Source of the DNA: Nereocystis luetkeana
Taxonomy: Eukaryota; Sar; Phaeophyceae; Laminariales; Laminariaceae
DNA length: 64,000 nucleotides
Direction of reading: 5' to 3'
Assembly: GCA_031213475.1 (NCBI GenBank)
Contig: JARUPZ010000006.1
Coordinates: forward strand, 2,447,501 to 2,511,500
In this document: piece by piece, positions 11,556 through 44,560 of the stretch
How the letters are laid out: each line of letters begins with the position of its first letter
Position numbering within the stretch: position 1 is the stretch's first letter
Position numbers and translations under genes: made by a program
The notes under the pieces: generated by a model
The model's database searches: none
Told to the model about the DNA's origin: nothing
What the model saw: the letters and a program-made list of their open reading frames with translations, nothing else

Positions 11556-11559
11556 AGGG

Positions 11560-13792: not shown

Positions 13793-13869
13793 CTAGAAAC
13801 GTAGATTTCATACATTGTACACATAGCCGATCCCCACCTTGTGATCTACTGTATAGGTCCTTAGAGGGG

Positions 13870-15110: not shown

Positions 15111-15356
15111 GTGGAAACCAGCCCAAGAGCTTGTATCACACGCACAGCTCAACCATGGTCCCTACACCACACCTTGGTGAATCGCAAGGTAGCACGAGCA
15201 CGCGCTCGTTTAACATTACATGAGGTCGTGAGGGAAATGCTCCAATATCTGGTAGAACTGCAGCCAGCCGCGTATCGTTCTACGCCGCATCCAGACCGTG
15301 GATTAAACTGTGGACCCGAGAGTTTTCTTCTAATGTTACGAGTGCGCATGAGTTGA
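15111..15356 (+). CDS. Highly conserved 81-codon open frame, copy 1
   Basis: The frame reads ...LTLHEVVREMLQYLVELQ..., a likely amphipathic helix, then PHPDRGLNCGPESFLLMLRV. In 246 bases only one change separates the copies and it is silent in this frame. It lies on the same strand and about 0.9 kb upstream of the short paralogue, so it could be an upstream exon of that gene, but I cannot show splice connection. Confidence 0.35.
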   Translation: METSPRACITRTAQPWSLHHTLVNRKVARARARLTLHEVVREMLQYLVELQPAAYRSTPHPDRGLNCGPESFLLMLRVRMS

Positions 15357-15603
15357 TGGGAAGTATATTGTGCATTGTGCAGGCACGAGATGGACATTCA
15401 TAACGTTTACAGTTCTGGGTTTCTTTAGCTGACTTAGTTTGCCCTGTGACAACAGAAATCCCTCTGTGCTGCTACACAGCATACCACTGTAGTAGTCGCT
15501 ACTGGCGAAGAGCCTAAATTCGTTGGATGGACACTACAACGTCCCGCAGAACCTGCTGGGTTTCAACCGTTGTGTATCGTCTATCCTACTATCAATACCT
15601 GAC

Positions 15604-16224
15604 TCACACGCATTGTGCTTTGTGGAGGCTGTGCGAACAACATGCACATTCCATTTGTCCATCATCGTACACTTTCTGACGACATGGCATATGTATCGGC
15701 ACTGGCCTTTTGAAGACCTCCTGCAAGCACCTCCTGACACGCGTATTGTGGATTGTATATGGTATCGTTTGTCCGAGTCGAGGGAGAGACAGAAATTTCT
15801 CGCCCCGAACAGATGTATGGATAGCAGCCTCCTGCGAGTTCTTCTCAGTATCCCACCGCCATTTGTTTCCCTGGCTCTCTTTCTCCCTGTTCCCAAGGTT
15901 CCTAACTAAAAGCACCAACCGTAGAGGTGTCTCTGCAAGGTATGCTGTGGTTCCATTCCACTCCCCCAGATCGTAATGTCCAACTGCAAAAAAACGGAAC
16001 CATGGATCATACGTAACCCCGTCTATCTGGAAGTGTTCCCCCTCAAACGATAAGAGGGTGGAAGGGATGGAAAGGAATTCGCGCTCACAAACGTCGATTG
16101 GTTGAGTAACCCTTGGTAGGGCTGATCTCGAATGCTGTCTATCCATGCGTACGGTGATGAACGATAAACACGATGACACTAACAAATCTGGGACGATGCG
16201 CCCTTTCATGTACACGCCCCCCAA
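15604..16224 (-). CDS. 206-codon minus-strand open frame, copy 1
   Basis: Contains FEGEHFQIDGVTYDPWFRFF and GHYDLGEWNGTTAYLAE. Its length is near the limit of what chance gives in a window this size. A 128-codon frame on the opposite strand (15523-15909) overlaps it, and changes between copies do not favour either strand clearly. Treated as unproven. Confidence 0.2.
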   Translation of the reverse strand: MGGVYMKGRIVPDLLVSSCLSFITVRMDRQHSRSALPRVTQPIDVCEREFLSIPSTLLSFEGEHFQIDGVTYDPWFRFFAVGHYDLGEWNGTTAYLAETPLRLVLLVRNLGNREKESQGNKWRWDTEKNSQEAAIHTSVRGEKFLSLPRLGQTIPYTIHNTRVRRCLQEVFKRPVPIHMPCRQKVYDDGQMECACCSHSLHKAQCV

Positions 16225-16237
16225 TACATCCCGCCAG

Positions 16238-16590
16238 TCACTACACTATCAGTCGCCGCGCTTGTCACTAACCAATCTCGCTCGTCGTCCATTGCACGCC
16301 TCGTTGTTACGTCAAACGTTCTTCGTCATGCAAATAATCGCCGTTCTTCAACTGAATCTTTGACAAGAATGCCCAGGCAAAGAGGGTTTATGGCAGGAAA
16401 CACAAACGAAATCTTCGCCTCAGTCGACAACACGTGGGCAAGAACAACTCCGACCCTGTCTTCTACTACTACTTTTTCCGAGTATCACGAATTCGTGCTT
16501 GTCGGCATTCAAGGAGGGACCGCCAATGATCACGGGAAACGTCAGCGATGCACCGACCTGAAACACGTCTGGAACCTACCGCTCATACAG
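16238..16590 (+). CDS. Short paralogue, N-terminal exon, copy 1
   Basis: Acceptor ATCCCGCCAG, then two bases and 117 open codons ending in LKHVWNLPLIQ at the donor CAG-GTGAAG. The long gene's upstream exon likewise starts with two bases and ends phase 0. Both share an SLTR word, an NE(I/V) pair, a Trp followed by Thr/Ser-rich sequence, and Y-x-x-F-x-x-L near the end. The ATG at 16369 could instead be a start, but the frame is open upstream. Between copies: five replacements, one silent. Confidence 0.45.
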
Positions 16591-17252
16591 GTGAAGATAT
16601 CAACTAACGCCGCCATGTAATTCTAAAGATATAGTATAGGTGTCGAAAGGAACTCGCTCAGAAATATGTTTGAAACTGTCGTCAGAATGTGTGCGTTGGT
16701 GGAAGGTTCCACGAAAGTGATCAGAATTTCATCGTAGAGTTCGGCGATCGTGCATAATATTGAAAACCAAGTGAAAAACACCCTCAGTCAGCCAGCCTGC
16801 CAGAGACAAAGGAACCCCTGTGAGTGCGGTCGGTCCCCCGCCGATCCAAAACTTGCATTCGCTGGAAATAATGTTTCGTCTTGGAAGTTGAGGATATCGC
16901 GTCGCTGTGAGTTCTGGTTGGCTGGAATCATTAATAAAATGGTCGTATTGCAATTGGAGAAACAGAGCGTGGTGGGGGATTTGACCTCGAACATCGTGAA
17001 AAACAAACAGATCGCTTGAGTTTTGCCCGTTGATCAGGGTTATTTATGTTTCCTTTTGATTATGGTTTCCCGGGTGTGGATCCTATGGGATTCTTGAAGA
17101 TGACCTGGTCATAATATTTGTCGATTTGGTTCGCGGATTGGCCCTGAGCGTTTTCATTTCTGTTTTCCTAACGTATCGCGTGCATTACAAATGATACGTT
17201 AGTGATATATTATTAGTGGGTTACTGACCTGTTCACGGCGATGCCGCCTCAG

Positions 17253-17900
17253 GTGTTACCGGGGTTCTCGCTCGACGTCGACGTTGAACAAGACCATAGC
17301 GAAAGAGGGCGGTGGACAAGATTTGCGTGGGAGCCACCTATACCACCGGACCAGTTCATGATACGATTCTTGAATGTACTCCTCTACGTGCTCCACATCA
17401 TCCGCTCGAACCACTTTCATGCCTTCCTGTTCGGGAGTAGGCATCGCCGCCGCCGCTACTACATCAACCCCAACAGCACGAGAGGTCGCCGTTATCGCAG
17501 GATTTCGCGGGCAAAGGCCGACATGTCCCGGAGTCTGCGCAGCTTATGGGCGCAGGCTCAGGCTGTTCCTTCGTCCCCTACAGCGAAGAGAAAAGCGCTC
17601 AGGGCGACCGACATACCCATTCCTGCGAGGGCTAGTCTACAGGCGGCTGCTCCTACAGCGCGGCTACTCCTCGTGTCGCCACCTGTGCTGTCGACCCCGT
17701 TGGAGGTAGAGGGTCTGGCGGCTGCGTCGCCTTCCCTGAGCCTTGTTTGCCAGGTCGTTGCTACCGTCTCACCGTGGCCCCTTCACCACTCGACGACGTC
17801 GCTATGGATGCCCGATGCAGCAGTGACTGGCTCACTGTGTGCCGACAAGACGTGGTTGAGTGTGCCGCCACAAACCGTCGCCGTGGCTGAACTGCGATAG
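17253..17900 (+). CDS. Short paralogue, head exon (RWTRF and Arg-rich block), copy 1
   Basis: Open from GTG after the CAG acceptor (an ATG lies just upstream at 17241). It encodes GRWTRFAWEPPIPPDQFMIRF, then LLYVLHIIRSNHFHAFLFG, then an Arg/Tyr-rich block (RHRRRRYY, RGRRYRRISRAKADM). This aligns with the long gene's RWTRF, ALLYAAHVINADHIHALLYG and RRYRRINLNSKRNRRLRRIS. A Pro/Ala spacer follows, and a single PLWMPDAAV word echoes the start of the repeat unit of the long gene. A stop interrupts the frame at 17898. Confidence 0.7.
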   Translation: MLPGFSLDVDVEQDHSERGRWTRFAWEPPIPPDQFMIRFLNVLLYVLHIIRSNHFHAFLFGSRHRRRRYYINPNSTRGRRYRRISRAKADMSRSLRSLWAQAQAVPSSPTAKRKALRATDIPIPARASLQAAAPTARLLLVSPPVLSTPLEVEGLAAASPSLSLVCQVVATVSPWPLHHSTTSLWMPDAAVTGSLCADKTWLSVPPQTVAVAELR

Positions 17901-18640
17901 TCCGGGCGTGTCGTGACTGCGGGTGGGTGGAATTGTGCCGTCCAGCCTGGCGTGGACAGACTTTGGGTTGTGGGAAGAGGGACCAATATTCACTCCCGAC
18001 CTGGTTATATCAAGGTGAATCGACCCCCATTTGATCCGCGTGGAAGCATGCATGTGTGCAAAGGGAACGCCCAGCCGTCGCCACGGTCTCAGCGTGCGCG
18101 GTAACGCCCTCAAGGCACGAGAGGATGTCACCAGCGGCCCCCGGCAGTGTCCCTACGGGCATAGTACGTGCATAGCCTGCTGCTGTAGGCATTTGTAAAA
18201 CGGAAAATGACTACGCCAAACGATATCAACGTCGCGAAATATAATTCTCGGGCTGTCACGCCGTGTGTGTCGAGCGAATACACTGTCCGAACTCCCGAAA
18301 CATTTACAACTAGTGTTCCTGAGGTGCTGCACTGCCCTTCAACGACGAATGTGTATAATACAGTGCAATCGACAGAGGTTGGTGTATAGCAGATGATCAT
18401 ACCGGCGGCCGAGTCGATCAGCGTCATGTATACTCCAACAAACACCCTGTAGCACCCCACGCACGCCCCGTCCCGGCTACACTTTCTTCTCGGTTAGTGA
18501 GAGCCACTTCGGCGATCCTTATCTTCCTTTGGCGATGATGGGCTTGCATATATCGATGTGTATGTTATGACAACCTGAGCCCATCCGCTCTGGCACCAAC
18601 GCTTGAACGTATGGTTTAATTGCTAGCTCCCTCCTACAAG

Positions 18641-18915
18641 TGACCCCTCGCCTGTTCCACGACGATGCCGTGCACCAGGACTCCGACGCTATGCTCACGG
18701 ACTCACTGAATGCCCGGGATTCGCCGGGATTGGCACAATGCCTCACAGTGATGGACTGGACCCAGCCGGGCGGCATCTCGCGAAAGGATAGCTGCTCGAG
18801 TGATTCTGTTCGAGCTTATATAGCTTGGTCGCTATTTGTCTCTTGCATGAAACGAGTGGATGCGATGCGCAGTATGGTGCCGACCGTCGCACTAAACCCC
18901 GACAGCGGCTATCAG
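18641..18915 (+). CDS. Short paralogue, C-domain exon, copy 1
   Basis: The frame covers ...AQCLTVMDWTQPGG...RVDAMRSMVPTVALNPDSGYQ and ends exactly at CAG-GTACGT. The long gene's large exon ends ...TIAVMDMDESD...RAALRWILTEAVELYPCTGYAQ at CAG-GTGAGG, so both the residues (VMD, L-x-P-x-x-GY-x-Q) and the intron position correspond. Confidence 0.55.
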
Positions 18916-19019
18916 GTACGTCGATGCGACCACATGGCTATATCTTCTGTATAAACCTATTCATGGTGCCAACCTCGGTACATTAACCGTGCCAGCACAT
19001 GAAACATTACAAGTTGCAG

Positions 19020-19157
19020 GCTGCCGCACTTCCCGCCACGAATATCGAACGACCATCGTTTGTGTTTGTGTACGTAACAATAGTCCGTCGGTTTGGCAAA
19101 GACAAGGAACTCTTACATAAATCATTCAAATCTTGGATCAGTTCTATGTTACATGCA
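19020..19157 (+). CDS. Short paralogue, small helical exon, copy 1
   Basis: After acceptor AAGTTGCAG the phase-0 frame has FVFVYVTIVRRFGKDKELLH, aligning without gaps to FYHAARAIYRGVRGDKKAAL in the long gene, with shared Phe, Ile, Arg, Asp-Lys, Leu, Phe, Trp, Ser at equal spacing. It meets TGA where the long gene has a Trp codon, in both copies. Confidence 0.5.
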
Positions 19158-19619
19158 TGATATCCCTGACAACATGTTATACCGCGCGCCGATGTCGTTG
19201 GAGCGATTCCATTGAGGTTGGCAATGCGTAGTAGCGTGGGAAACCTAAAAGAATGACGCAGAGCCACTGCTGTTACTCGCCTCCCGTAATTTCAGAATGC
19301 TAAAAAAAGTGTATTTGACGTGACTCTTGACCAATTACGTGAGGAGTTTCCTCCCTGTGATGTGTACCGGGCCGGCGGCCTTCCCAACCATCCATCGGTC
19401 TTCGACTGTTGCTCTGCGACCTTTGCTTATCGTCAAGATGCATGCGCACGACAACCGGCGACCAATACGCACACATTGTTTATGGCTTTTTTACTGCTTG
19501 ACGCCCACGCTTCAATGAGTACCGTCGAACGGTCCTCCTTGTCCCAACGTAATATGATATTGTCTTCTTGTGCGTCGGGCGTTTCGACGGTACCGTCCGA
19601 CCCCTGGCGTATACGTATG

Positions 19620-20132
19620 TAGGGTGTGTGCATTCAGCAGCAGGTGATGATTTACACCGCGCACGGGATCACGACTTGCTTTGATCAGGTCGGCGGGCAC
19701 GCGTCCATCTTTTGTGGCGGCCTCGTCATCGGCCACCAGGCTTCGGCATCTTCGCTGGCATTGCCGGTTGTCCCGTCAGTTTTCCTGCGTACATCGAATC
19801 CCGCTATTGAAGAATGGGGGCTTGTCACTCAGTTCGAAAACGTCGTGGGGCCATGGCCCCCTGCTCGTGTGGCGCGAACGCTGCACGGAGGGCCCGAGGT
19901 GGTGGTGATTTCAGCACTGGATGCCTCGGCTTGGTCGTGCCAAGCACAAACCTTCACCCTGTTGGACGAGACCCAGTCCGACAGCAAGACCCTGGCCCGA
20001 GATGGATGGAAGGGCGCCATACAAACCGGGTTTAGTAGGTGGTCTGCCGCCTGTCCCATGGAGCTGGTAGACTTGCGGTGGAGTATGGCGAAATCCGTCA
20101 CACCACGTCGCTCGTGCAATGACAATGACCAG
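19620..20132 (+). CDS. Open frame ending at a strong donor, copy 1
   Basis: About 170 codons, including GGHASIFCGGLVIGHQASAS and WKGAIQTGFSRWSAACPMEL, end at CAG-GTAGGT (20130-20138). The frame is open throughout here but shifted by a one-base indel in copy 2 (near 48.44 kb). It lies downstream of the short paralogue exons on the same strand and could be its continuation or a separate gene. No domain is recognised. Confidence 0.35.
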
Positions 20133-20565
20133 GTAGGTCAGCCGTTTTTAGTAGTGCGATGAATTGTGTGTCGGTACGGCTGACTTGTACATTTGTAATC
20201 GCCGTCATCGCGCTCAGCGGATGTCGACAAAACCAATATTAGCAGGCAGCGAAAGTCTTGGTGCAGAGCGTGTGCGAGGGCTGAACTGACAAACTTCCTC
20301 CCATCGCTGCAGCCCCGAATCACCTACAGATAGCTACGTTTCCACGTCATGTTGAGCGTTGTTCTGCAGTGGCTCACCTCTTCATTACAATAGGTCGACC
20401 CCCTGGACGACCGGTTGTACGTGAAACCCCAAGAGCATGCCTTGTTGTTTTTCGATTACCCAACGATTCACCTGATCCCCGGGCCGTTGCGGCAGGCCCG
20501 TCTTATCTTTCTTTTGTTCACCGATCACTGACCATCTTATATACCAGTACGATATATTCGCGTGT

Positions 20566-20931
20566 ATGGCCATCACCCCACACTTGCACCGAAGAATTGT
20601 ACAGTACGTTCATATCCTGCACTCGACGGATTTGCCTTACTGCAGAATACTACAGTACTTATCTTCCCAACGGCGCTCGACCCCTGTGTTATGGTTATGG
20701 TTTTCTGGCTATCGTCAATGCCGCACGACTGCTTCAATAACGGTCATGCAGGGCGCACGGAATCAGGCAAGCCAGAATACGCAGGGGGGGGGCGCTGCTA
20801 CGTCCGAGGAGCGCGATCGGCACCAATCAATGTCACTGGCCTACTTCATGGAGACCTACCCCGTTGTGGTTTCCGTGCTCGCTTTGTTGCTTTATGTCTC
20901 TGCGGTTCGGTTGCAGGGCCATTTCGTATAA
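20566..20931 (+). CDS. Open frame with a C-terminal membrane helix, copy 1
   Basis: 121 codons end in SLAYFMETYPVVVSVLALLL YVSAVRLQG, a plausible single transmembrane segment with a short tail. The last 170 or so bases, covering the helix, are identical in copy 2. Another frame over the same bases (Cys/Gly-rich, to 21032) is equally conserved, so the reading frame is not proven. Confidence 0.3.
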   Translation: MAITPHLHRRIVQYVHILHSTDLPYCRILQYLSSQRRSTPVLWLWFSGYRQCRTTASITVMQGARNQASQNTQGGGAATSEERDRHQSMSLAYFMETYPVVVSVLALLLYVSAVRLQGHFV

Positions 20932-21647
20932 TCGTTGACCAACATGTGCGCGTCAAGACTGTTGTTCATGTAGGGGTTGCATATCGTGTACGATGCTGTA
21001 GCTTCTATACGGCATCGACAGATCGGGGTTAGTGATGATCCTTGTAGTCTGCAGGACCGATCGTGTTTGCAGACGAGCTGCCCACCACACCACATCACAC
21101 CACACCTTGGGTTATATTCGTACTGCCAGTGGTACGGGATACCACAAGGGCGCTGGAGGGCGACGTTGATCCTACTGTAGGCAATCCATACGTAGAGCGC
21201 TGTTCAGCATCGTAACGTACACTTCGCATTTCAATCAACACCGGTGGCGCATACGGTTGATAGAACGGACGCCTCAGACGTAAAGGCTGGCCATAGATAC
21301 TGCCAAGTGCATCTTGGACAGAGTGAGCGCTGGGAGCTGGCTAGCCATGTGTACGAACCAAGAGATAGGGACAGGGGGGTACCCTCAAGATTTGGAGGGA
21401 TTTCCCCCCGTTTCGCGAAGAGCGTTAGTCCCTCAAGCGTCAAGTGTAAGACATTGTGGATGCTACCACTATAGGTCGGTTCAAGTAGAACATCATTGAA
21501 TGCCGACTGGCGGAGAAACATACCTGTCATATTATCGTTAAATACATTGCCTCTCGGGGGTGTTTAACCGTGGGTGCTACTACCATCAGGTGACGGGCTT
21601 CACTAGTTGCAATATTACATTGTTACATCGCCGTTCGCGGTGCTCGT

Positions 21648-21884
21648 GTGACTCTGCAGGGAAATATCCCCTGCAGGACAGGTCTACCACATACGGGCGA
21701 CACCCGCACTGCTTGCCTACAATACAGTGCAGTAGATATATCAGGTGTCTCCGAAGTTTCCCAAGGCAGAGCCTACACCATCGTCGAACGTAGCCGCGAA
21801 AACCTACGTCGCCACAATCAGTACATTGCCATTGGACGCTGCGCTACCCCGCATCAAGTACTGCTTCGAGATACTCTACTGTAG
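21648..21884 (+). CDS. Conserved open frame, copy 1
   Basis: Ends ISGVSEVSQGRAYTIVERS, then RENLRRHNQYIAIGRC, to a stop at 21884. In the last 160 bases the single change to copy 2 is silent in this frame and a replacement in the overlapping one. Length is within chance range and no family is recognised. Confidence 0.27.
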   Translation: MTLQGNIPCRTGLPHTGDTRTACLQYSAVDISGVSEVSQGRAYTIVERSRENLRRHNQYIAIGRCATPHQVLLRDTLL

Positions 21885-22462
21885 GACTGAAGAGTAGGCT
21901 CGCATAGCGGGTTCGGGCTACACTCTTGTCGGGAGGAAACTATCGCGGCTCACGCACATCTTGGTACAAGATGCCTACACTATGCATGTTGGAGCTCCGA
22001 CCACCAGGTTGTTTGATAGGCACACTCTCCTAGCGCAAAGTCGCACCAATTGAACTTGGGCATGTACCGTGGACACTCCTGTAGTACTCGACCGTATCGA
22101 TAGTTACTACAAATAACAGTATCCCCTCCTGAAACGAAGCCTGAGCTTTCCAGAGATACGAAAACAACGGCGGCGGTTGAGCTGGAGATTGTGTGGAACA
22201 CACCTCTTTCTGAAACCGAAAGGTTAGTCGAGGCGACAATGCCGGTTTATTACTAGATTGCCGCGGGAAGGTAAAACAGCCTTGAGGGATCGCGTCGAAT
22301 GGAGACCGGCCTTAAGGATTGATTCAATCTGGGGATGGGTTTCTACGCGAGTTGCATAGGGAACGGGGGGGGGGACGGCTACCATGGCCATGTATGAATG
22401 GTTGCGGGTCAAACACACCTCCCCTTTAGAGACGGTGTTGCAGCCCCGGACACCCCAGTTAC

Positions 22463-22672
22463 TTGATAGAGGAAATCTTTCCGTGCAGGGAGCAAGGTGA
22501 TTGGAGACTCGTTCTGGATATTTGTTTCGGAGCTCCGGTTTGTTGCGGAGGTTTGATACCAGATAGGCACTTTTCCTTACAGGGGAAGTCGAACGGGGTC
22601 TTTGACGCCTGCGGGAAATATCCAACTCTAATTAACAGCATTTTGTCTCCACGCGTGTGGCTGCGGTTCTGA
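22463..22672 (+). CDS. Conserved 69-codon open frame, copy 1
   Basis: Contains two Cys-containing loops (EIFPCREQGD, GAPVCCGGLIPDRH) and ends SPRVWLRF. Four differences to copy 2: three silent, one Trp-to-Arg. A G-run precedes it at 22366-22375. The small sample makes this tentative. Confidence 0.27.
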   Translation: MIEEIFPCREQGDWRLVLDICFGAPVCCGGLIPDRHFSLQGKSNGVFDACGKYPTLINSILSPRVWLRF

Positions 22673-22792
22673 CGGAGTAGGGAGTAGGGAGTAGGGATGA
22701 GTTTCCATGTTTGCTGGTTGTTTAGGGTGGTGCACATCGTAGTCATGAACGTCTTCGATTTATCATGGGTTGGGGTCGGGAACGTTCGCTTA

Positions 22793-23935
22793 AACCGTGC
22801 GGTTTTGCATTCCTACGTGCCTCCATCTAGACTTGGTGCGTGTATGCTATACAGTCCTGATGCGAGTAATCGGGTGCTGTTTGTTTTATTGTGCTTGTGA
22901 TCGTTATTCCCGTTGTTCCTATACAGCATGTCGGGGGTGTAGTTGTGCATGCTTCGCTAACATTTGCTTCGCTGTTATCGGAGCAGCCCGCCCAAGGAAC
23001 GCCGCAACTTCTATATCAACTTCGTGGCGACTTGATGCATTTGTTCGTTTAAATCGCGCTGGGAAAATAAAACGAAGACCGCCTGCGCACCTGTCAATTT
23101 TACAAACACAGTGGCCCCTTGATCGCGATTGACAACACTTACATGATCATGCCGAGGTATCGTAATTCCTGTAAGGTATCTTGATGTCTACAACAGTATC
23201 AGTAGTGTTACCATTTTGCTCGCGATTTTGACGATACATTCATGTGATGAGTGAAGCATTCGAGGCATGCCGTTGCTGCAAAGCGTGCCCAACCGTAGCG
23301 CTATGATAAGTCTCCTGCCCCCCCTCGTGTTTTATTCTGGGATGAATATTGTGATATAAGCCCGGCGGTTCTGCTGGAGATGTTGAACGGCGTTTGTCTG
23401 TTCTCATTCGGGTCTGGGATGCGCCTGCTTTCGCCAAACACGCCATATTGTTGGGAACTTTACGGTGGGTTCCGGTAGTCGAGACCTGAATCGTTAACTT
23501 CGCAGCACTAGTTTAAAGGTTTAAAGATTAGAGGGAGATACGTTCTTTAGCGCGATATGAGTAGAACGCATTGCTTTTAGGCTTGAATCGGGAACAACCT
23601 CTTCTGTGTTCATAAAAATTGGCGTCGATTTCTCTGATCTTGTTCACGACTCAATGTCAGCACTCCTGTGTTACATTTTTGATTTAGCATGAAATGGTGA
23701 ACGATTTAGCATGAGATGCCGAACGAGGGAGACATTTACGTCGTAGGTGATGATGCACTGCTGTCTAATTTGTGTTATCGTGCCAATGGTATACTGGAAG
23801 GAACCAATTAATTCCGTATTGCGAAACAAATTTCCCGCTGAAAGAAACAATCTCCGATCCGAGTCGTTTCTCGAAAAGCCACAAAATACACATCATCCCA
23901 CCTAAATAAAGCGGTTGTGAAGTGGCAATACAGAA
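22793..23935. other. Block present only in copy 1
   Basis: About 1.14 kb with no counterpart in copy 2, where flanks join at about 51268-51270. There is no terminal repeat or target duplication at the edges, only a base or so of microhomology, so loss from copy 2 is more likely than insertion in copy 1. It contains a Cys-rich 111-codon frame (22797-23132) of unknown meaning. Confidence 0.75.
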
Positions 23936-24043
23936 AGCATTCCCTCTACTTCGCTGGTCGACGGCCACGACCAAACACGATCCATCCAAAGGACAAACCA
24001 AACATGGTGACTGAACAAGTTGGAGTGCAATAGGATTACAGCT

Positions 24044-24196
24044 ATGTCGGTGGAAAAGTACGACCCGTTCGATTATTCAAATTTAAGGCACATTCCTTGC
24101 TTTTTCGAACTGCAAGTGGCATACATTAATACTATAGAAACTAAGGCGAAACTACCTATATTTGTTTTGTTGTTTTGTACCTGGGATATTCTCATG
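24044..24196 (+). CDS. Possible first exon, copy 1 only
   Basis: ATG, then 51 codons (MSVEKYDPFDYSNLRHIPCF, then FELQVAYINTIETKAKLP and a hydrophobic end), closing at ATG-GTGAGC, a good donor. In copy 2 the same frame has an early TAG and an 8-base loss, so if it was a gene it is broken there. Confidence 0.27.
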
Positions 24197-25887
24197 GTGA
24201 GCAATATATCCCATTGACACTACCCCCACAATCCTCCAGCCGGGGCCAGGAGTACTACACACCATTATGACCGAAAATGTAATCCCCATTTAGGGATTGG
24301 TGTCCATCAACATCAGACGGGTACAATTTTCCCGGCCAAATTTATACGCGACTGCTGGATGCACGTATGCCATGAAGCTGGAAAACAGAAGTGGCCCAAA
24401 CGTTTTTTTCGCCGTGTTGTTGCTGCTACTGTTGTTGTGGTGTACATGAAAAACAAAGCACCAGCCAACAGATGCGGAGAGATGACTGCACTGCATGGAA
24501 CGAAATATTTGCGGGCTAGACACTGCATTTGCGGACATGATACATGTTGCATGAAGTACACCACCTACCATAGTACTGCAGGGTCCTTATTTATAGACCG
24601 GTTCTATGTTGTAATACTGAAAACCGAAGCTATTCAATCGGTTTATGCGTCCCATCTTAGATATATTTATGAATATGCTCATTAGTTAGTTGCTCCAGTG
24701 AATCGGATATATCAAAATATACGCCGGGTGCCAGGAAAGAGTTAATGGCTTGCTGCGCGGAAGGCTCTTGCATTCGGAAGGCCACACTATTACGCCCAAT
24801 CAATTTGTTTGCACCCCTGTCAGATTGCTGGAACATGTGCGAGGTGATAATGCATAAATGTTTTGAAACGTCATTTGCATCCCCCCCCTCTGTAAAAACA
24901 TTTTGCGTAGATCAGTCGGAAGGACCACACGATGCATCACGCTTCACGCTCGTCGGGGAAACTTTCTCAGAACGCTACGATTCAAGCACACGATACAAAC
25001 GACTGGCAATCATACGTCGCTGGGCATACCGCGCACAACCCATCTCATAAAAAGACCCCGAAGATACGCCTAAGGCTCATTCCCCTCTCACGCGCCTACA
25101 TACCATTTTCCTATCACGAAGCAAAACCTATATTCCGAACGTACGTGTGTTACAGGATTGGCCGGCGCTATCCGATCCTCAGCATCCACCATCAAAACAA
25201 TATCCACATATTTTTAGCACTTAGCAAACTCGAGCAGTCCCACTGACAGAAACGCTGTTGTCCTGCGGAAAAATGCTAGAGTAGACCTACATCTCTCTGG
25301 ACCGACACGTAAGGATCGGAATGCATCAAAGTACAGAACGATCAGGTAATTTCCGTTCATAGGGTGGCATTCACTTCGGCACAAACCAAACGCTAATGTA
25401 CAGTGCACCCCCCTTGACGTGGCGTACGATATTACTGTGTACCCCCCCCCCCCCCCCATATAATAGAACGAAAGCACAGGTGAACGTACAAGTTCGAAAC
25501 CATGTTGACGCGCCACTTATATATATATAACGCCCATCGATCTTGTGAAGGAACCATGTTAAACTGAGGCATGGAGTATTCCACTACACCGGTGACCCAG
25601 TAGCGGGATATACGTCATCATCGACCCGACCCCACTCGTGCCAACACCGATCGCTAGACTACACACGAGGCATCGGAGACCCTATGATTTGACCCTCGCG
25701 GGGGGGGGGAGAGCGGAGGGTGTGGATCCGGTTAAACCTTTGGTGAAGGGGTGTGTGGTTCACCTCTCAGGAGAAAAGGAGGGGAGGGGGGGGTCAAGGG
25801 AATCCGGGGAGTTTCAACACCCGTATAGGGCGGACACTTCTCTTTAACCATAACCTCTTTGCTACACTGTGAGTATGATCCTTACAG
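24197..25887. other. No clear gene, copy 1
   Basis: Contains overlapping open frames of about 100 codons (24745-25050, 24932-25246). Changes between copies are nearly all replacements in either frame, with a stop in copy 2 for the first, as expected of non-coding DNA. A C-run of about 15 bases lies at 25443-25457. Confidence 0.45.
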
Positions 25888-26163
25888 GACAGGGTCGTTC
25901 TCGAGGTAGGTGGCCTTGAACCCTCCAATGAATACAACTTCACGCTGAACTTCATGTCTAGCGTCGTGAATAAGAACACCTGTTACATATACCACATACC
26001 TCAGGACACGAAAGGTAAAATGAAAATATGGGCCGACAATCCTGTGCACACGTTAACCGCAGAGAGCTCAACGCTACCTACGATCCACGACAGCGTATAC
26101 AAGTTCTCAGGGCTACGTCGTGGAAAGGAATCGAACGACATGCGTTCTTACAGTACCCGCTAA
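25888..26163 (+). CDS. Terminal exon of an unknown gene, copy 1
   Basis: Acceptor CCTTACAG, then 91 codons in phase 0 to TAA. The start (VVLEVGGLEPSNEYNFTLNF) resembles the V-x-GL-x-P-x-x-x-Y-x-F strand motif found in fibronectin type III domains and also in T-box domains, but the rest supports neither firmly. Copy 2 differs by one silent and two replacement changes in 276 bases. It lies just past the 3' end of the long minus-strand gene, so the two would be convergent. Confidence 0.4.
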   Translation, partial: DRVVLEVGGLEPSNEYNFTLNFMSSVVNKNTCYIYHIPQDTKGKMKIWADNPVHTLTAESSTLPTIHDSVYKFSGLRRGKESNDMRSYSTR

Positions 26164-26408
26164 GAAGCAGGAACACAGCCGCGAGGCATAGATACAAGCT
26201 ACGCATGATATGAAGAAACGCAACGAAATGAAATCCATGGTTTCATCAAAATCACACCACCCTAAGTATTACAATTGGTGGCACAACATAAACCAGCCAG
26301 TCTTCAGGTGTGCGATTGTGCGTTCAGGGCGGAAACCCGAACACACGCACTCAGATTGCATCGTTACTGCTACCGGTTACCGCCCGATCACAGGACTTTT
26401 AATAACGG

Positions 26409-26552
26409 TCAGAACAACCGCACTGTGCCGAACACTGCAGCTGTGTAGCCAGTAACAAAGGAGCCCAGGTCCATGGGCGCGTGTCTCGCCAGGTCGTCGA
26501 AGCTCCTCGTCGTCTGGCCAGCGGAGAAAAGCCTTTCCCGTATGCAGATATC
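26409..26552 (-). CDS. Long gene, terminal exon, copy 1
   Basis: Acceptor GCATTTATAG, then 47 codons and TGA: DICIRERLFSAGQTTRSFDD, LARHAPMDLGSFVTGYTAAV, FGTVRLF. The length including the stop is again 144 nt and the phase matches the previous donor. Copy 2 differs by one silent change and one codon. Confidence 0.5.
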   Translation of the reverse strand, partial: DICIRERLFSAGQTTRSFDDLARHAPMDLGSFVTGYTAAVFGTVRLF

Positions 26553-29500
26553 CTATAAATGCACCAGATATACGTCAAGTTGAGATTCCATGGAGAGAGG
26601 GCCGCAAGCAAGACATCGAGGAGAAGGCAGAGAGGCGTTGAAAGGGGGTATTTATGGCAACTGCACGTATTTTCGATTGGCGCATACAAACATTGTGCGA
26701 TTGTAGAGATAAAGATATCGATACTACAGTCATCATATGTGTACGAATATACCAGGTGCAATATACAGACCAGACCCGAAACAGTGGAGGCACCTGCTTA
26801 AAATACCGATACGTTCATTCACACTCATTCAAGCCCATAGTTAATTCATTTCACTTTTTCGAATGACTCAAGGAACAACCTGCAGCAATATCGAAGTAGT
26901 AGTGCCTCTATTCTAGGTAGTCTATTCCCTCTGTTTCTTCTCTGCTGCACTAAAATTCACTTTGTTTTTAGCTTTACGGTAAATAACAAAATCAACTGCA
27001 ATAATAGTGATGACGTAGTTAGAGGCTTCGAGTGGAGAGACGTGCAGATAGATGATGGTGACCGCGACGTTTACTCGCGTTGCTATTTAAAATACGCCCC
27101 CGTGTCTCACCGAGGTGGCGTCCATGTTTCTCTTGCATTCAGTTTCGGCGACGGCCAGCAAGCTGTGCATCACCCAGAGCGACACCGCGGGGCCGTTGTT
27201 GCCCGCCTCCAGCGTCTTCTCGATCAGGGAGTGCACCACCTCATTGGGCAGCCCCTGGCACGTGCAAAGACAGCCGACAGCGCTGGCAACAAATACGGCG
27301 GGAGCGCGACAAAGCACGGGTGGTTGGGTTGGTTCGTGAAGCGTCGTCTCGAAATAATTCATTCGGAAGCCAGGGAGGGGACATGGAATTTGAATATTTG
27401 TACCACGGTACATGACCCATACCATTACGTATTGTAACATGGTTGAAAAGCCCTAAACATGTCGGATGTTGTTTCAATCATTTTGCGGATGATAACTATT
27501 TAAACTCGAAACGTTGGTTTATCAGTGGTAGGAGAAATGGCTGAATAACGACATTGGTTGACAGACCCCCTGTCTTACACGTGATGGAGTCAACACAATA
27601 GCGCGCTTGCGATACACGATGATGGTGAGTAACGGTTATCACTTTGCAAAACAAAACAGATGTAGGGTTTTGGAATATTCTGCTGTGCCTATTAAGCATG
27701 CTGATAGCGGACGAGCGTAGCCCATCAAGGAGGTCGAGCATATTTAGTTGTTTTAACACGTTCACAGAAAACGTCTTCTCTGACAGGCAAACTGAAACAT
27801 AACTCGAAGGTATTGAATGTTATCGACAAAACAATCCATCCTGGTAAACCCCTTCGTTGACATGACACCTAAATAAGAACCGAAATCGGAATACACAATC
27901 GGAATGCAATGCGACCACTCCGCTCACCTCACGAATATCTCAGCATATAGAGCGTCCATGGTTTCATCTTCTAACCAGATGTGCGCTGTCGGAGACTGCC
28001 TTCGCAACACCTCCCATGAGTGCCTCATACCCTGGGAAATTCAACGACAAAACAAATGTGCGTATTGCGTCGATCAAAAGCTGTGAGCTGTACGCGACTC
28101 CTTGTGGGTTTGGGACCATACCATCCCCAGAACCTTGCGGTTTCTCAATAATGTCTTGCCGTGTACTTGTGGATACAGGCCAGGTATGGTGAGGGGACCC
28201 GTGTGCAAGCTAACAACACAGCAACAGGAAAGGTGGGGACACCATGAACGCGCTACAGTACCGAGAAAATACACAAGGGATGAGGGGGGGGGGGGCCATG
28301 CTCTAGTGCTTGTTTGATTTTTCTTACCTTCTCGAGCAGAACTGGCTGTCCGTCGATCGTAGATCTCTGAAACCAGGCTGCGGGAGACGCCCACTGCACG
28401 AACACTTTTAGCGCTGCTTTCTTGTCTCCTCGTACTCCACGGTAGATTGCCCGTGCGGCGTGGTAAAAGCCCTGCAAATGCGTGACGAGAGGAGGTGAAG
28501 TCATTGGTTTGTACGTACCAGATTTGCGGTTTACGGCGAAATATAGGGTGTGTGTTTTGTGCCTCGTTTCTGCTTCAATGCATTACGCATAAGTGCACTG
28601 CAAACACAAACATTTGTTTTTTAACTGTACTTCAGCTGAAATAATACAAACGGTAAGAAAACCGCGCAAAGTATATGGGATATGAGACTATGTAATCAAC
28701 GTAAGGACTGGTATCGGTGGCTTGGAAGCCAATCATCTACCACGACGTATACCCTCAGGAACCCAACGTCTCGCCAGACAATATGATTTCATTAAAAGAA
28801 GAGTGAGTGCGGCAACAATCTGATGAACAGTGGCTCCAGTGGAGCCTCGGTACAAAACGAAAAATACTGCGTAGGACAGATAAACAATTCCAACAATACA
28901 ATGGTTGTGCAGCCACCAAATGATAATCCAGTCAGCCACAATTTCGTTATCGGAGGGAAAATGTCGATTTGCATACAGCACATGGCATAGATATGGAAGG
29001 GCCTCACCTGTGCATAGCCGGTACACGGGTAAAGCTCCACCGCCTCCGTTAATATCCACCGCAGAGCTGCCCGCTCTGAAGGACACGCCTCGACCGAAAA
29101 TCGGTCCACGTCGGCCTTGATGACGTACCCCCACCCTCGCTTTGGCCTGGCCATGCTGTCGGACTCGTCCATGTCCATCACTGCGATCGTCTTCGCGACC
29201 CTCGCCCAATTAAGGGCATGCAACGTATCCACTGCATCCGACGGAACAATAGCTCTCTCCTCCTCAGACTCCCAGAGACGCGGCGGCACCGCAAGCGCAG
29301 GGGGGAACCATGGTCCCGCCGGAAGTCTGCCCAAATGAATGCCGACACCGAGGGTAGATGCCTGAGGGAAGGGATCCAGGGCAGGCCACAGGGCCGATGA
29401 AGCTTGAAAAAGAACAGGCTCCGGCGCCGATCCAGGTTTCCAGCGAAACGGCGGAAATAAATGGGCAGGGATGATCACTGGTGCCGCGCGTATTCGGTTC

Positions 29501-32286
29501 TGCAGAAACACGGGTCCGAGCGCAACTTCGAGAGAGAAGGCGCTTGTGACAGGCCACGAGCCCTCCGGGGCCTGGTATGGAACTACTTCCATGGCCGCTC
29601 CAGGCTCCCAGAGAAACGGCGCAGGGACGATCACTGGTGCCGCAGGAGGATGCCCCAGCGGAACTACGACTCCGAGCCTAGCTGCCGGATGAAAGGAGTC
29701 CAGGGAGAGACATGACGCGGTGGCGGTGGATTGACTAGGAACTAGTTCCATCGCTTCGCCGTGTTCCCAGCGAACTGGCGCAACCTGAAGCGCAGGGGTG
29801 ATCAACAGTGTAGCAGGAAGGTGTTCCAACGGGAGCACGGCTCCGAGCGCAGCTCCCATAGGAAAGAGGTTCGGGGCAGGCCAAAGTGTCGTCGAGGGTC
29901 TGTGAATAGCTAGATCCATGGTCGACCCAGGCTCCGAACGAAGTGGCGCAAGAGGAAGGGCAGGAGCGATCGATGGTTCCAGTGGGCGTTGTTCAAGCGG
30001 AATATCCGCTCCAAACGCAGCTCCTTGAGATGAGGAGTCCAGAGTAGGCAACAGGGCCGCCGGTGTTTGGCAAACAATTATGCCAATCGTCGCCCCAGTA
30101 CCTCCGAGATGAGGCGCAAGCCCAAGTGCAGAGGCGAGCAACGGTGCTGCAGAAAGGTTCTCCAGTGAAATGTCAAGTCCAAGAGCAGGCGCCGGAGATA
30201 AGCGGTCCCGGGTAGGCCACGGGGTCACCGGGATTTGGTAGCAAACTATTTCCATCACCGGGCCAGGCTCCCAGGTAACAGGCGCAACCGGAAGCGCAGG
30301 GGTGATCAACGGTGCCACTTCAATTTGCTCCAGGGGACCCATGGCTCCGAGTGCAGCTGCAAGAGAAAAGGAGTCCAGGGCAGGAAACGGGGCCGCCGGG
30401 GCTCGGTAGGGAACTAGTTCCATAGCCGCTCCAGGTTCCCAGCGAAGTGGCGCAGCCGGAAGAAGGAAAGGGTCGATGAACAGTGCCACAGAAACGTGCT
30501 CCGGCGGAATGGCAGCTCCGAGCACAGCCGCCATAGGGAAGGCGTCCAGAGCAGGCCTTGGGGTTGCCGGGGCGTGGTAAGGGACGATGTCCATCGCCGC
30601 TCCAGGTTCCCAGAGAAACGGCGCATCCGGGGGCGCAGAGGCCATCAACGGGGGCTGAGGAAGGTGCACCGACGGAAGGGTGGCCGTGGGTGCTGCTGCC
30701 GGGGGCAAGTGTCTTAGAGTAGTCCATGGTTCCGGAGGCGTTTCCAAGGGTGTCAGGACGCTTACGGAGGAAGCAGGAGCCAAGTTGACACCTAAATTGG
30801 CCATCGGGGGCCAGCGCGCCACAGACACCGCAGGAGCAGCAATGATTGCGACCTCCGTCGGGTTCAGATTCAGTGGTGCTGTATCCCTAACTGCGCCCTT
30901 TTCCCGCTCATCTCCGCACAATGTCCATGCAAAGCACATAACCTGTGTCCAGGCGTCCCACAACATCTGGTCAAGGTCGGCATTTACTCGCGAGATGCGG
31001 CGGAGACGGCGATTTCTCTTGCTGTTCAAGTTTATACGGCGGTAGCGGCAGCGGCGGCGGTTTCTTCCTCGCTTCCTTCCGTAGAGCAAAGCGTGTATGT
31101 GGTCCGCGTTGATGACGTGGGCAGCGTACAGGAGAGCGATGAAGAATCGGTCCACGAACTGCTCCAGGGGGGCGGGAGTCTTCCGGTCGAATCTCGTCCA
31201 TCGAAACTCTTCGTCTTGATCGTCATCTGGAGGTTGTTGGAAATCGCCCGCAAGATATGTCGACACCTGGGGCGGGATTAGCGGTAGTTAGTTGTCAATA
31301 ACCGGTGTTAACAGTAGTTCTATGTGTTTTAAAGTTAAGGCTGGGACCCTTGCGGTTTGTCTTACTTCGACAGTGTACGTCTTCCTATACTGGGGTGCTA
31401 ACCTTCGGAGCCAGTGACAACGAACCAAGACTACGCCAGGAACGGGATTCGCGGGGTTCGCTTTCTTTCCCCCGCTCCAACGTACCTTTCTCCTTCTTCG
31501 TGAAATGATCTACTCTAACGCGATGATTCCAACTTCGACAAACTGTTTTTACGGTAGCTTTGAGCATTGTGACTTGCTCTACATAAGTTTTATGTCCTTC
31601 CTTCGCTTGTTGTTCGGACCTACCTGGTAGAGTAGAACGGGACTAGCGAGTTTCGCTTCATCTCTCATCGCGCCTACACGTTTATGTCGCTCTTCGAACA
31701 ACCATCAACAGAGAGGTGGTGTGTTCAACGATGACGACCATACGGGATATATATTGTAGCTATCGGACTGTGACTTGCTCTATTCTAGTTGTATATCGTT
31801 ATTCATCTGCTTTCGTTTTGGTACGGGGCGCCCGGCGCTCCCAGAGTATGCTTCAGCGGCCTCAAATTAGGGCTGCCCATACCTCTCCAGCAGTTGTGAC
31901 AGGAGTGGCAATGCCAGTGTAGGCACCGCTTGACGCTCTTCCTAGGGCGTAGCCGGCCATGAGTTGCGGCAGGACGGCGAATCTATCGTACATGCCCAGG
32001 GATGTCTCGATACTGTTTTCAAGAACGTCGGCGAGGACGGAGACAGCAGACACGCCTGCGGTCGGAATAGATCTGGTAGCAGCGGTCCAAAACCCAGTCC
32101 TCACGTTGCACGTCTTGGCGCCGCCGGCATCATAAGGGTAGTTGACCTCGTTTTGCTCGTTTCGTTTGAATCTCCTTGTCAGCGATCGGCAAGCAACACG
32201 GTAGAAATAAGGTCGTATCGCCCAGACATTCTGCGGTGGCGGACAGGCGATGTTTTTACGAGATGATTCAAGCCTATTTCCCCAAA
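26409..32286 (-). CDS. Long RWTRF repeat-protein gene, copy 1 (seven exons)
   Basis: Proposed exons in order: 32286-31883, 31266-29008, 28471-28328, 28031-27928, about 27791-27643, 27254-27111 and 26552-26409 (TGA). All donors and acceptors are GT-AG, and phases agree except at the fifth exon, whose acceptor in this copy (TTTCAG) sits five bases upstream of the copy 2 one and would shift the frame. Layout of the roughly 1.1-thousand-residue product: N-terminal exon, RWTRF head, Arg-rich basic block (possible nuclear targeting or nucleic-acid contact), eight Trp/Pro/Ala repeats, then a helix-rich C-terminal part. No family is recognised. Further upstream exons are likely because the first exon begins at an acceptor. 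Confidence 0.6.
27111..27254 (-). CDS. Long gene, second 144-nt exon, copy 1
   Basis: Acceptor CACGTGCCAG, donor TCG-GTGAGAC, 48 codons, phase 0: GLPNEVVHSLIEKTLEAGNN, then GPAVSLWVMHSLLAVAETEC and KRNMDATS. Only two changes separate the copies and both are silent, so the peptide is identical. The short paralogue also has GGLPN right after an acceptor (about 47910), which supports a shared exon. Confidence 0.6.
27643..27791 (-). CDS. Long gene, fifth exon, copy 1 (acceptor altered)
   Basis: Homologue of 54980-55124. The coding part (EKTFSVNVLKQLNMLDLLDG...) is retained but the acceptor sequence changed from ATTTAG-CATG in copy 2 to TTTCAG-TTTG here, which predicts a shifted frame. Exact use cannot be judged without transcripts. 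Confidence 0.4.
27928..28031 (-). CDS. Long gene, 104-nt exon, copy 1
   Basis: Acceptor AATTTCCCAG, donor GTGAG-GTGAGCG, 34 codons plus two bases: GMRHSWEVLRRQSPTAHIWL, then EDETMDALYAEIFV. Three silent and three replacement base changes to copy 2. The WLEDETMDALY word recalls the WL-x-D-E-x-(I/M) start of Ulp1-like protease domains, but no downstream catalytic residues fit, so I do not call a protease. Confidence 0.55.
28328..28471 (-). CDS. Long gene, 144-nt helical exon, copy 1
   Basis: Acceptor TTTGCAG and donor GAAG-GTAAGAAA bracket 48 codons in phase 0: GFYHAARAIYRGVRGDKKAA, then LKVFVQWASPAAWF and DGQPVLLEK. Spacing of Ala, Gly-Asp, Ala, Phe and Pro resembles a tetratricopeptide helical hairpin, by inspection only. 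The paralogue exon 19020-19157 aligns with it. Confidence 0.6.
28500..29007. other. Intron of the long gene, copy 1
   Basis: About 536 nt between the large exon and the 144-nt exon. Its 5' end starts GTGAGG. Nothing else recognised. Confidence 0.5.
29008..31266 (-). CDS. Long gene, large exon, copy 1 (753 codons)
   Basis: Opens at GTG right after CCCGCCCCAG, with CTAAC/CTAAT branch-like words upstream, and ends GYAQ at CAG-GTGAGG. The homologous place in the short paralogue has ATG where this gene has ATC, so GTG is an internal codon after a splice acceptor rather than a start. Residues 1-30 are acidic and end RWTRF. Residues 30-65 are hydrophobic with HINADHIHALLYG-type sequence, and about 65-95 are very Arg-rich. 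A Pro/Ala spacer, the repeat array and a C-domain (TIAVMDMDESD, RPKRGWGYVIKADVDRF) follow. An uninterrupted frame of this length is not chance. Confidence 0.9.
29287..30621 (-). repeat. Coding repeat array, eight units, copy 1
   Basis: Eight tandem units of 53-57 residues with consensus P-x-R-W-E-P-G-A-A-M-E-(L/I)-V-P-Y, then A-x-W-P-A-L-D-S-F, L-G-A-x-x-P-L-E and L-I-x-P-A-L. Units are diverged from each other; the first six form one 334-residue block, the last two (29287-29619) are distinct. A ninth degenerate start (PPRLWESEE) follows. Confidence 0.9.
31300..31880. other. Intron of the long gene, copy 1
   Basis: Separates the upstream exon from the large exon; begins GTATGG on the minus strand and ends ATCCCGCCCCAG. 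No other feature seen. Confidence 0.45.
31883..32286 (-). CDS. Long gene, upstream exon, copy 1
   Basis: From acceptor GGACACAG, two bases plus 134 codons to the donor GAG-GTATGG, phase 0. Includes NVWAIRPYFYRVACRSLTRR, a Cys/Arg-rich start, then FWTAATRSIPTAG and SLGMYDRFAVLPQLMAG. It corresponds to 16238-16590 of the short paralogue. Thirteen differences to copy 2 are nearly all replacements, so it evolves fast or without constraint. Confidence 0.5.
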
Positions 32287-32418
32287 CTGTGTCCGCCACG
32301 AATGTCCCAAGCAATAATAGCTACTCCAATGCCACAAAGTAGGCATCATGCTGATCCCCATGAACAGCAGAAGTGTTTGTGATACGCAGTCTCTTCGTTA
32401 AGGGCTAGCGGCGAAACT

Positions 32419-32778
32419 GTGTCCCGAGTAACCGCAGACCACATGAAAGGACAAGCGCAGGAATGGATTTCCGTGATGAAAGGAAACCAGTTTTCTCTGT
32501 ATTGTTCTGAACCAGCCGGCTCAACTGTATCTGCTCCATGTCATTTCCATAGTGCATTTCGCGACAAAAATGAAAAAAAGACTGGGTACGGTCAACCTCA
32601 TGTGTATTGCGACGCTAAGAATCGATCCTACACCGAAGCTGAGACAGAGGAAGGAGCCGGTTCTCCTGCAGATACTCCATGGTATATAGTCAGCACGTTT
32701 CGCATGAAAAATACGAAGATGGACTACAGTACGTCAGGCCGACTGCACGTGGACTTTCGCGATAACAAACGTTCCTAA
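32419..32778 (+). CDS. 119-codon open frame, copy 1
   Basis: Contains GYGQPHVYCDAKNRSYTEAE and YIVSTFRMKNTKMDYSTSGR, soluble and mixed-charge. Lies upstream of the long gene on the other strand. In copy 2 the same frame is cut by a TAA (about 62027) but remains similar after it. Length is within chance, and the copy 2 stop argues against a required gene. Confidence 0.27.
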   Translation: MSRVTADHMKGQAQEWISVMKGNQFSLYCSEPAGSTVSAPCHFHSAFRDKNEKKTGYGQPHVYCDAKNRSYTEAETEEGAGSPADTPWYIVSTFRMKNTKMDYSTSGRLHVDFRDNKRS

Positions 32779-33039
32779 TCTGAAACTTAGATCATATACT
32801 AAGTATCGAATTACTAGTAAACGGCAATTACGTACGCAAAACACGTTTCGGATATTGTTTTCCGCGCTAGATACCAGCGCGATTCCAGTACAATTTGTGC
32901 AATGCATCTATTACAGATCTATTGCTGCAGTATGGAACTCGTATGTATGAAAAAAAAACACACCTTGGACAACGTGACACTAAACGTTCTATGTTAATGT
33001 TACGCGCCAGCAAAAACAAACTCGTAACATTTCGTTAAT

Positions 33040-33600
33040 GCGTTGATTACTTTCTGCATTTTCTGTCCACATACATAGGGTTAGTGCGTTGTGATATTTG
33101 CGGGCGATATCCTAGTGTTATGTTCGAGTGTTGCCTTGATCCCGTACTGGCCGCAGTGGGTGTTACGATGTTAGGGTAGGCATCGCATAGCGAGTAACAC
33201 GATGTTAGCGTGTTAGCGAATTTCCTTGTCGCTATCGTAACGCACGTTGAAGGGATAACGTAGACGGCCAATTAAACGTTAACATTATGCCATCGCGATA
33301 GCGATATCAGCCCGTAGCGAGTAACGTTATGTTAGTGTGTTAGCGGGATTGTTACTTGCTACCGTAATACCCTGTAGACGGATAACGTACACGGCCAAAT
33401 ATACACGTACCCAACATCACCATGATAGGGTATTAGATAGTGAAATACCTTGTGGCTATCGTAGCAAACGTTAGAGATATGACGTAGATGGTCAATACAA
33501 CGTTAACATTGTGCTACCGTATCATTCGCAGGAGCGGTCCATATCGAGCAACGTTATTTGAGGGTGTTAACGGAAGGCTTGCTCCCAAAAACATACATCA
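33040..33600. repeat. TTAGCG/GATAACG degenerate tandem repeat, copy 1
   Basis: Units of roughly 110-120 bp share GTAACGTTATGTTAGTGTGTTA, CTATCGTAACGCACGTT and GGATAACGTAGACGGCCAA words with moderate divergence. The theme continues weakly at 34080-34250. Confidence 0.75.
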
Positions 33601-33625
33601 AACGAATTACGTATACGAGGTATGA

Positions 33626-36320: not shown

Positions 36321-36324
36321 AGAG
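36321..36324. other. Empty LTR-element target site in copy 2
   Basis: Copy 2 reads straight through ACATTATTGG-AGAG-ATCCCGATCC with no insertion, the pre-insertion state of the site occupied at 61-7967. Confidence 0.93.
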
Positions 36325-36445
36325 ATCCCGATCCATACATAAACAAATTAGTTCCTACAGTTTTCGTGTCTTACTCATACGAGCTATCTTCACTGTGTGC
36401 ACATATTGTGCACGTAAACCAGGAATCTGTCTGCCCCGAAACGTT

Positions 36446-39872: not shown

Positions 39873-39876
39873 AGGG

Positions 39877-44547: not shown

Positions 44548-44560
44548 TACATCCCGCCAG

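What the first reader, a model, noticed from the sequence alone, without database searches (positions are those of the whole stretch)
16238..32286. Undescribed gene family: convergent long and short paralogues sharing an RWTRF head, basic block and exon plan
The plus-strand gene at 16.2-20 kb and the minus-strand gene at 32.3-26.4 kb align at their head (RWTRF, LLY-x-x-H-(I/V)-I, H-(I/F)-HA-(L/F)-L-(Y/F)-G, Arg-rich block), at the C-domain ending GY-x-Q at a donor, and at the following helical exon, with the same intron phases. I know of no described family with this order. Only the long member has the repeat array.
Basis: partly seen in the sequence, partly recalled or inferred. Interest (0 to 1): 0.82.

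Follow-up and report, generated by a model that had tools for sequence, protein, structure and literature searches.

The report
Orphan gene pair with growing repeats
A eukaryotic stretch of DNA carries two successive pairs of related genes that match no protein family we could search, one gene of each pair holding a protein repeat array whose length differs between the copies; a real but probably lineage-specific gene family of unknown job.

Summary
The core observation is right and can be extended. The minus-strand (long) and plus-strand (short) genes share a 90-residue head far beyond chance (score 209; 2000 shuffles reach at most 50), and codon changes between the heads show protein-level constraint. 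The array has 8 units in copy A and 20 in B, which carries two extra six-unit blocks. Part of the exon plan is wrong or unproven: the closest C-domain counterpart in the short gene lies at 19.88-20.13 kb (0 of 5000 shuffles), not 18.7-18.9 kb, although that seems a second, weaker copy. The 'helical exon' is not convincing (59 of 2000) and the first exons show no similarity. The long gene has two further 144-nt exons. No family was found in Pfam, PHROGs, PDB sequences, IMG/VR, GTDB genomes or phages; AlphaFold2 models are weak. Best reading: a fast-evolving, lineage-restricted eukaryotic family, perhaps a nucleic-acid-binding basic head on a flexible spacer; function is inference only.

The parts
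31883..31993 (-).
   Evidence: the wider frame 31883-32281 shows 1 synonymous and 10 nonsynonymous A/B changes, so only the 3' part is taken as coding
29008..31266 (-). Long gene A, exon 2: head + spacer + repeat array + C-domain, 753 codons without a stop
30943..31227 (-). Head of long A (RWTRF ... HIHALLYG ... Arg-rich block)
   Evidence: tblastn to short head 17286-17555, E 4.5e-23 within the window; shuffles; codon test
29278..30615 (-). Repeat array of long A: 8 units of about 56 aa (168 bp)
   Evidence: AF2 of three units pLDDT 27.7
29008..29241 (-). C-domain of long A, ends GYAQ at donor
28328..28471 (-). Long A exon 3, 144 nt, phase 0
   Evidence: open in A and B; 43 of 48 aa identical; A/B pN 0.055, pS 0.056, no constraint visible
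27111..27254 (-). Long A exon 4, 144 nt, phase 0
   Evidence: 48 of 48 aa identical to B; 2 synonymous changes
26409..26552 (-). Long A exon 5, terminal, 144 nt including stop
   Evidence: 46 of 47 aa identical to B
16369..16590 (+).
17241..17900 (+). Short gene A, head ORF (head 17286-17555); stop at 17898-17900 where copy B is open
18679..18915 (+).
19623..19745 (+). Short gene A, segment similar to long exon 5
   Evidence: score 56, 0 of 300; next best other ORF 33; identity alone not above random placement, 1187 of 5000
19878..20132 (+). Short gene A, C-type segment 2: closest counterpart of the long C-domain, ends Q at donor
   Evidence: E 6.7e-9; 0 of 5000
53746..61510 (-). Long gene B (model by alignment with A): exons 61400-61510, 56521-60786 (20 repeat units), 55832-55975, 54448-54591, 53746-53889
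44692..48677 (+). Short gene B: candidate exon 1 44692-44913, head ORF within 45537-46424, segments 46999-47235, 48167-48289, 48423-48677
7964..34326 (.). Tandem unit A of the roughly 28-kb duplication
36321..64000 (.). Tandem unit B (runs to the end of the window)

Best explanation
These are four members of one eukaryotic, probably lineage-restricted protein family. An old inverted duplication gave a convergent pair (short, plus strand; long, minus strand). A recent tandem duplication of about 28 kb then doubled the pair. All share an N-terminal head (RWTRF, a hydrophobic stretch, then an Arg-rich block) and a small C-type domain. In the long gene the stretch between them is a Pro/Ala/Leu-rich array of 56-residue units that changes length in six-unit blocks, as unequal exchange would give, while the frame stays open. 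Shown: head and C-domain homology, constraint on the head, the tandem duplication, the array difference. Inferred: the order of the duplications and unequal exchange; that the basic head is a nuclear-targeting, nucleic-acid-binding part, the array a flexible spacer of tolerated length, and the C-terminal exons a small helical interaction module, so that the protein would act as a length-variable tether between nucleic acid and a partner.
For: Tandem duplication. Head homology: 0 of 2000 shuffles; 45 identical aa against 33.6 expected if the same base changes fell at random, 2 of 5000, with stops in 4664 of 5000 random placements and none observed. C-domain: 0 of 5000. Long exons 4 and 5 nearly identical between A and B (48 of 48, 46 of 47 aa; 1.4% and 2.1% of bases differ), introns 2.9-5.6%. 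GC3 of the modelled exons outside the array 0.62-0.68 against intron GC 0.42-0.48. Array 8 versus 20 units, 2004 bp extra in B, a multiple of three. Head net charge +8/+11 and 18% Arg; array net charge -16, 17% Pro, 17% Ala. Array model pLDDT 27.7, below 50 at all 169 residues, which fits disorder.
Against: A-versus-B changes show no significant purifying selection in the pooled exons (long outside the array pN 0.022, pS 0.030, p 0.23; short p 0.20; array pN 0.056, pS 0.063, p 0.37), and exon 3 and the C-domain diverge about as much as introns (5.6% and 3.7% of bases). Between array units, identity clearly exceeds random placement in only 2 of the 22 unit pairs printed. Array GC3 is 0.55, not raised. 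The long exon 2 has no in-frame ATG before the head, so it needs exon 1, whose wider frame shows no constraint. Short copy A carries a stop. The head model is weak (pLDDT 62, pTM 0.24). Nothing here shows expression, localisation or binding.
Confidence: 0.45

Rival explanations
1. Decaying or non-coding: the genes were once functional, and some or all copies are now pseudogenes whose array stays open mainly because the unit length is a multiple of three.
For: Near-neutral pN/pS between copies; stop in short A; one-base length difference across the short 19623-20132 stretch between A and B; under random placement 856 of 5000 runs of the A-to-B array changes also give no stop.
Against: Exon 2 is open for 753 and 1422 codons while the other two sense frames hold 25 and 11 stops in A, 53 and 19 in B; exons 4 and 5 almost unchanged; head constraint between long and short.
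Confidence: 0.25
2. The head derives from a mobile-element or viral replication protein of the His-hydrophobic-His (HUH) kind: HIHA/HFHA would be the metal-binding motif.
For: His-hydrophobic-His conserved in all four heads. The comparison with HUH proteins is recalled, not from a call.
Against: The AF2 model puts the motif inside a helix and has no strand, though at low confidence; no head match in Pfam, PHROGs or PDB sequences at E up to 10; no relative in IMG/VR or phages.
Confidence: 0.04
3. One reading: head, C-domain 18679-18915, helical exon 19020 onward, colinear with the long gene.
For: C-type segment 1 ranks directly after segment 2 among 1470 open segments, and an HMM of the long C-domain plus segment 2 finds it at E 7e-5 in B and 0.0045 in A.
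Against: Segment 2 at 19878-20132 is far closer; the 19020 segment is not convincing, ends in a stop, and I saw no obvious donor near its end by eye (not scanned).
Confidence: 0.1
4. The two tandem copies are two haplotypes or an assembly error, so only one pair of genes exists.
For: Divergence of a few percent could be allelic in a highly polymorphic species.
Against: Copies follow each other in one sequence; the LTR-type insertion before A has its empty site before B; a copy of the junction sequence at positions 1-64 suggests a further unit to the left. None of these excludes an assembly error.
Confidence: 0.12

Closest known systems
Lineage-restricted (orphan) tandemly arrayed gene families with internal coding repeats (general kind, recalled)
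   Same: No detectable family outside the locus in the collections searched, recent tandem copies, in-frame repeats that change in number
   Different: Convergent long/short arrangement; array only in one member; C-type segment apparently present twice in the short gene
HUH endonucleases (Rep, IS200/IS605-type transposases; recalled)
   Same: A His-hydrophobic-His string in the head
   Different: No profile hit; model helical at low confidence; I identified no other catalytic motif and ran no direct comparison with HUH sequences
Mitochondrial transcription elongation factor TEFM (PDB 8u8u, 5ola)
   Same: Weak profile match of 31 C-domain positions, E 0.12
   Different: Not significant; no other shared feature tested

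Membership tests
One paralogous family (the long and short genes) | Homologous head beyond shuffled sequence | tested here: met
One paralogous family (the long and short genes) | Homologous C-domain | tested here: met
   Met at 19878-20132; weaker at 18679-18915
One paralogous family (the long and short genes) | Same exon plan and phases throughout | tested here: inconclusive
   Head acceptor matches; exon 1 shows no similarity and the helical exon is not convincing
HUH endonuclease | Profile match to an HUH family | tested here: not met
   No Pfam or PHROGs match of the heads at E up to 10
HUH endonuclease | HUH motif on a beta strand of the core sheet | tested here: inconclusive
   Model is helical but pLDDT 62, pTM 0.24
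HUH endonuclease | Metal-dependent cleavage of single-stranded DNA | not testable with these tools
   Needs purified protein
Any Pfam-A family | Score above the gathering cut-off | tested here: not met
   E up to 1; E up to 10. Matches of family segments, all below cut-off: in the array of long B Hao_C E 2.5e-5 (24.5 of 27 bits, 12 residues) and SR1P E 0.0075; Rab3-GTPase_cat E 0.16 in exon 3; Rep_4 E 0.094 in the 19020 segment

The most novel reading that the evidence does not exclude
An undescribed eukaryotic protein family with a head of unknown fold, whose long member changes spacer length in six-unit steps between tandem copies and whose C-terminal module (C-domain ... exon 5) was duplicated inside the short member; the length variation could be selected, for instance as a recognition or self/non-self locus.
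Probability: 0.1. Interest if true: 0.6.

Novelty: new member of a known kind. Interest (0 to 1): 0.33.

Why it matters
If expressed, it is a clean case for watching an orphan family evolve: an older inverted pair, a recent tandem copy to compare with, an array that differs by whole six-unit blocks, and a head held under constraint. The kind of thing (lineage-specific, repeat-bearing, tandemly copied genes) is common in eukaryotes (general knowledge); only the family itself appears undescribed, as far as these collections reach.

Tried and rejected
HUH idea: raised because of HIHA/HFHA; not supported. Search for relatives: IMG/VR with the long ORF, the heads and the C-domains (2, 35 and 37 pattern matches, none confirmed), GTDB genomes with the long ORF and the heads (3 and 33 pattern matches, none confirmed), phages with the long head: none. 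These scans rest on short peptide patterns and see close relatives best. Organism: no genome held, no tRNA (bacterial setting), no Rfam match at gathering score, no match above cut-off among the 10 ORFs (8 of them not family segments); introns, CpG observed/expected 1.0 and an LTR-type element point to a eukaryote; I did not name the group. Literature: 'RWTRF' anywhere in the held library, 0 papers; two general searches gave listings only and nothing usable; no paper was opened. Three-unit array windows in all registers did not align in register, so 8 of the 24 rows were used for the fold. Internal similarity among the three 144-nt exons: none (1324, 1051 and 1759 of 2000 shuffles as good). 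A counterpart of long exon 4 in the short gene: not found (293 of 300 in A, 264 of 300 in B). A terminal-exon match at 20752-20931 (63 of 5000) was selected by eye and is not claimed. The stretch 19296-19574, a candidate I tried for that exon, has pN 0.051, pS 0.138, p 0.023 uncorrected, and among 290 ORFs scanned no family ORF was outstanding (best 45 printed). No fold search was run because both models are too weak.

Caveats: the codon permutation tests use alignments chosen on protein score, which favours the observed value, most for the short, gappy comparisons. In one search identity alone was not significant for exon 5 versus its counterpart (1187 of 5000) and modest for the C-domains (159 and 251 of 5000); the BLOSUM sums were stronger (1, 0 and 5 of 5000). 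Shuffle tests keep composition only. Several segment choices (18679, 19623, 19878) were made after looking; the ranking over 1470 segments is the control for that.
Full report
What is there. The window looks eukaryotic (introns of 0.5-1.1 kb in the long-gene model, CpG observed/expected 1.0; no genome held). Self-comparison shows a tandem duplication that the finding does not mention: 7964-34326 repeats as 36321-64000 in blocks that are 94-98% identical.

The head. Long and short heads align over 90 codons with 45 identical residues. Score 209 compares with at most 50 in 2000 shuffles; with the Arg block left out, 130 against 46. Within the window the long head finds the two short heads by tblastn at E 4.5e-23 and 8.4e-23 and, besides itself and its B copy, nothing else below 0.39. 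Changes are most frequent at third codon positions (31, 24, 42 in copy A). If the same changes are placed at random, 33.6 identical residues are expected and 2 of 5000 placements reach 45; 4664 of 5000 contain a stop. This supports constraint on the protein since the long/short split. The alignment was chosen on protein score, which favours the observed value somewhat.

The long gene. Model: exon 1 to 31883, exon 2 31266-29008, exon 3 28471-28328, exon 4 27254-27111, exon 5 26552-26409 with the stop. The junctions have GT/AG, are phase 0, and lie at matching places in copy B; exons 3, 4 and 5 are 144 nt each; exon 3 is identical in 43 of 48 residues between copies, exon 4 in 48 of 48, exon 5 in 46 of 47. 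Exon 2 has no stop in 753 (A) and 1422 (B) codons; the other two sense frames hold 25 and 11 stops (A), 53 and 19 (B). There is no ATG in frame before the head in exon 2, so an upstream exon is required; the 37 codons before 31883 begin with an ATG, but the wider exon 1 frame shows no constraint between copies (1 synonymous, 10 nonsynonymous changes).

The array. A profile of the unit finds 8 units with positive score in A and 20 in B, plus one negative-scoring match in each. The difference is two six-unit blocks of 1002 bp (2004 bp). The array is 17% Pro, 17% Ala, 13% Leu and net negative. A three-unit model from 8 in-register rows has pLDDT 27.7 and no residue above 50, which fits disorder but does not prove it. 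A/B changes in the array are near neutral (pN 0.056, pS 0.063).

The short gene. A second segment, 19878-20132, is much closer (score 101, 0 of 5000; B 73, 0 of 5000), and also ends in Q at a donor; tblastn in the window gives E 6.7e-9, and tblastx of the two loci supports it. When all 1470 open segments of 30 or more residues in the window are ranked against the long C-domain, the order is long A, long B, segment 2 of A and B (101, 79), then segment 1 of B and A (52, 47), then 36 and less. So both are probably real, and the short gene has two C-type segments. Between them, at 19623-19745, lies a stretch similar to long exon 5 (score 56, 0 of 300 shuffled queries; next best other ORF 33), although identity alone is not above random placement (1187 of 5000). 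One reading is that the multi-exon C-terminal module was duplicated inside the short gene; counterparts of exon 3 and exon 4 in it were not established. I found no complete open model of the short gene: copy A has a stop at 17898-17900 where B is open, the best-scoring donor after the head, at 18014, lies beyond that stop, and the copies differ by one base in length across 19623-20132. One or both short copies may be decaying.

Selection between tandem copies. Pooled long exons outside the array: pN 0.022, pS 0.030, p 0.23; pooled short exons p 0.20; array p 0.37. These tests have little power (32, 38 and 78 changes) and do not show coding constraint on their own; the long/short comparison does so for the head.

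What it is. Pfam returned nothing above cut-off for 8, 10, 10 and 5 segments; the strongest sub-threshold match, Hao_C at E 2.5e-5 over 12 residues of the long B array, I take as an effect of repetitive sequence. PHROGs: no match for 7 of 8 segments, one at E 0.0088 to a family of unknown function in the array. PDB sequences: the long ORF one chain at E 0.48, head profile none at E up to 10, C-domain profile best E 0.12 to TEFM. No relative in IMG/VR, GTDB genomes or phages. The head model is helical with pLDDT 62 and pTM 0.24, too weak for a fold search. Eukaryotic protein databases could not be searched, so 'undescribed' is limited to these collections.

How it may work. The head carries a strongly basic block next to a hydrophobic stretch; such blocks often serve nuclear import and nucleic-acid binding (general knowledge, not a test). 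The array would be a flexible, length-tolerant spacer and the C-terminal exons a small interaction module. I put about 0.45 on the anatomy-plus-mechanism statement as a whole, most of the doubt being in the function; the homology and duplication parts alone I would put near 0.9.

Verdict. A real paralogous family, correctly spotted by eye, with a better C-domain assignment, a missed tandem duplication and an array that differs between copies; of modest general interest because lineage-restricted, repeat-bearing, tandemly copied genes are a common kind.

Noticed in passing
window 65-7963: LTR-type insertion: 620-bp direct repeats 65-684 and 7344-7963 (TG...CA; one mismatch seen in the alignment), purine run before the 3' copy, 4-bp target duplication AGAG, and the empty site in tandem copy B at 36317-36330. 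No long gag-pol frame; no match above cut-off for the 4 internal or LTR-overlapping ORFs scanned.
   Followed up: partly
window 1-64 and 36261-36324: The junction sequence before unit B also stands at the very start of the window, so unit A is probably preceded by a further tandem unit to the left.
   Followed up: no
window 22793-23935: About 1.1 kb present in unit A and absent from unit B.
   Followed up: no
window 5688-6301: Arrays of 37-, 64-, 76- and 101-bp repeats inside the LTR-type element.
   Followed up: no
window 20752-20931 (+): Possible small terminal exon or gene with a hydrophobic C-terminal stretch, open in both copies; a weak resemblance to long exon 5 (63 of 5000 shuffles), chosen by eye.
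   Followed up: partly
window 63030-63215 and 62616-62677: Two-copy tandem duplications of 92 and 31 bp, 100% matching, in unit B.
   Followed up: no
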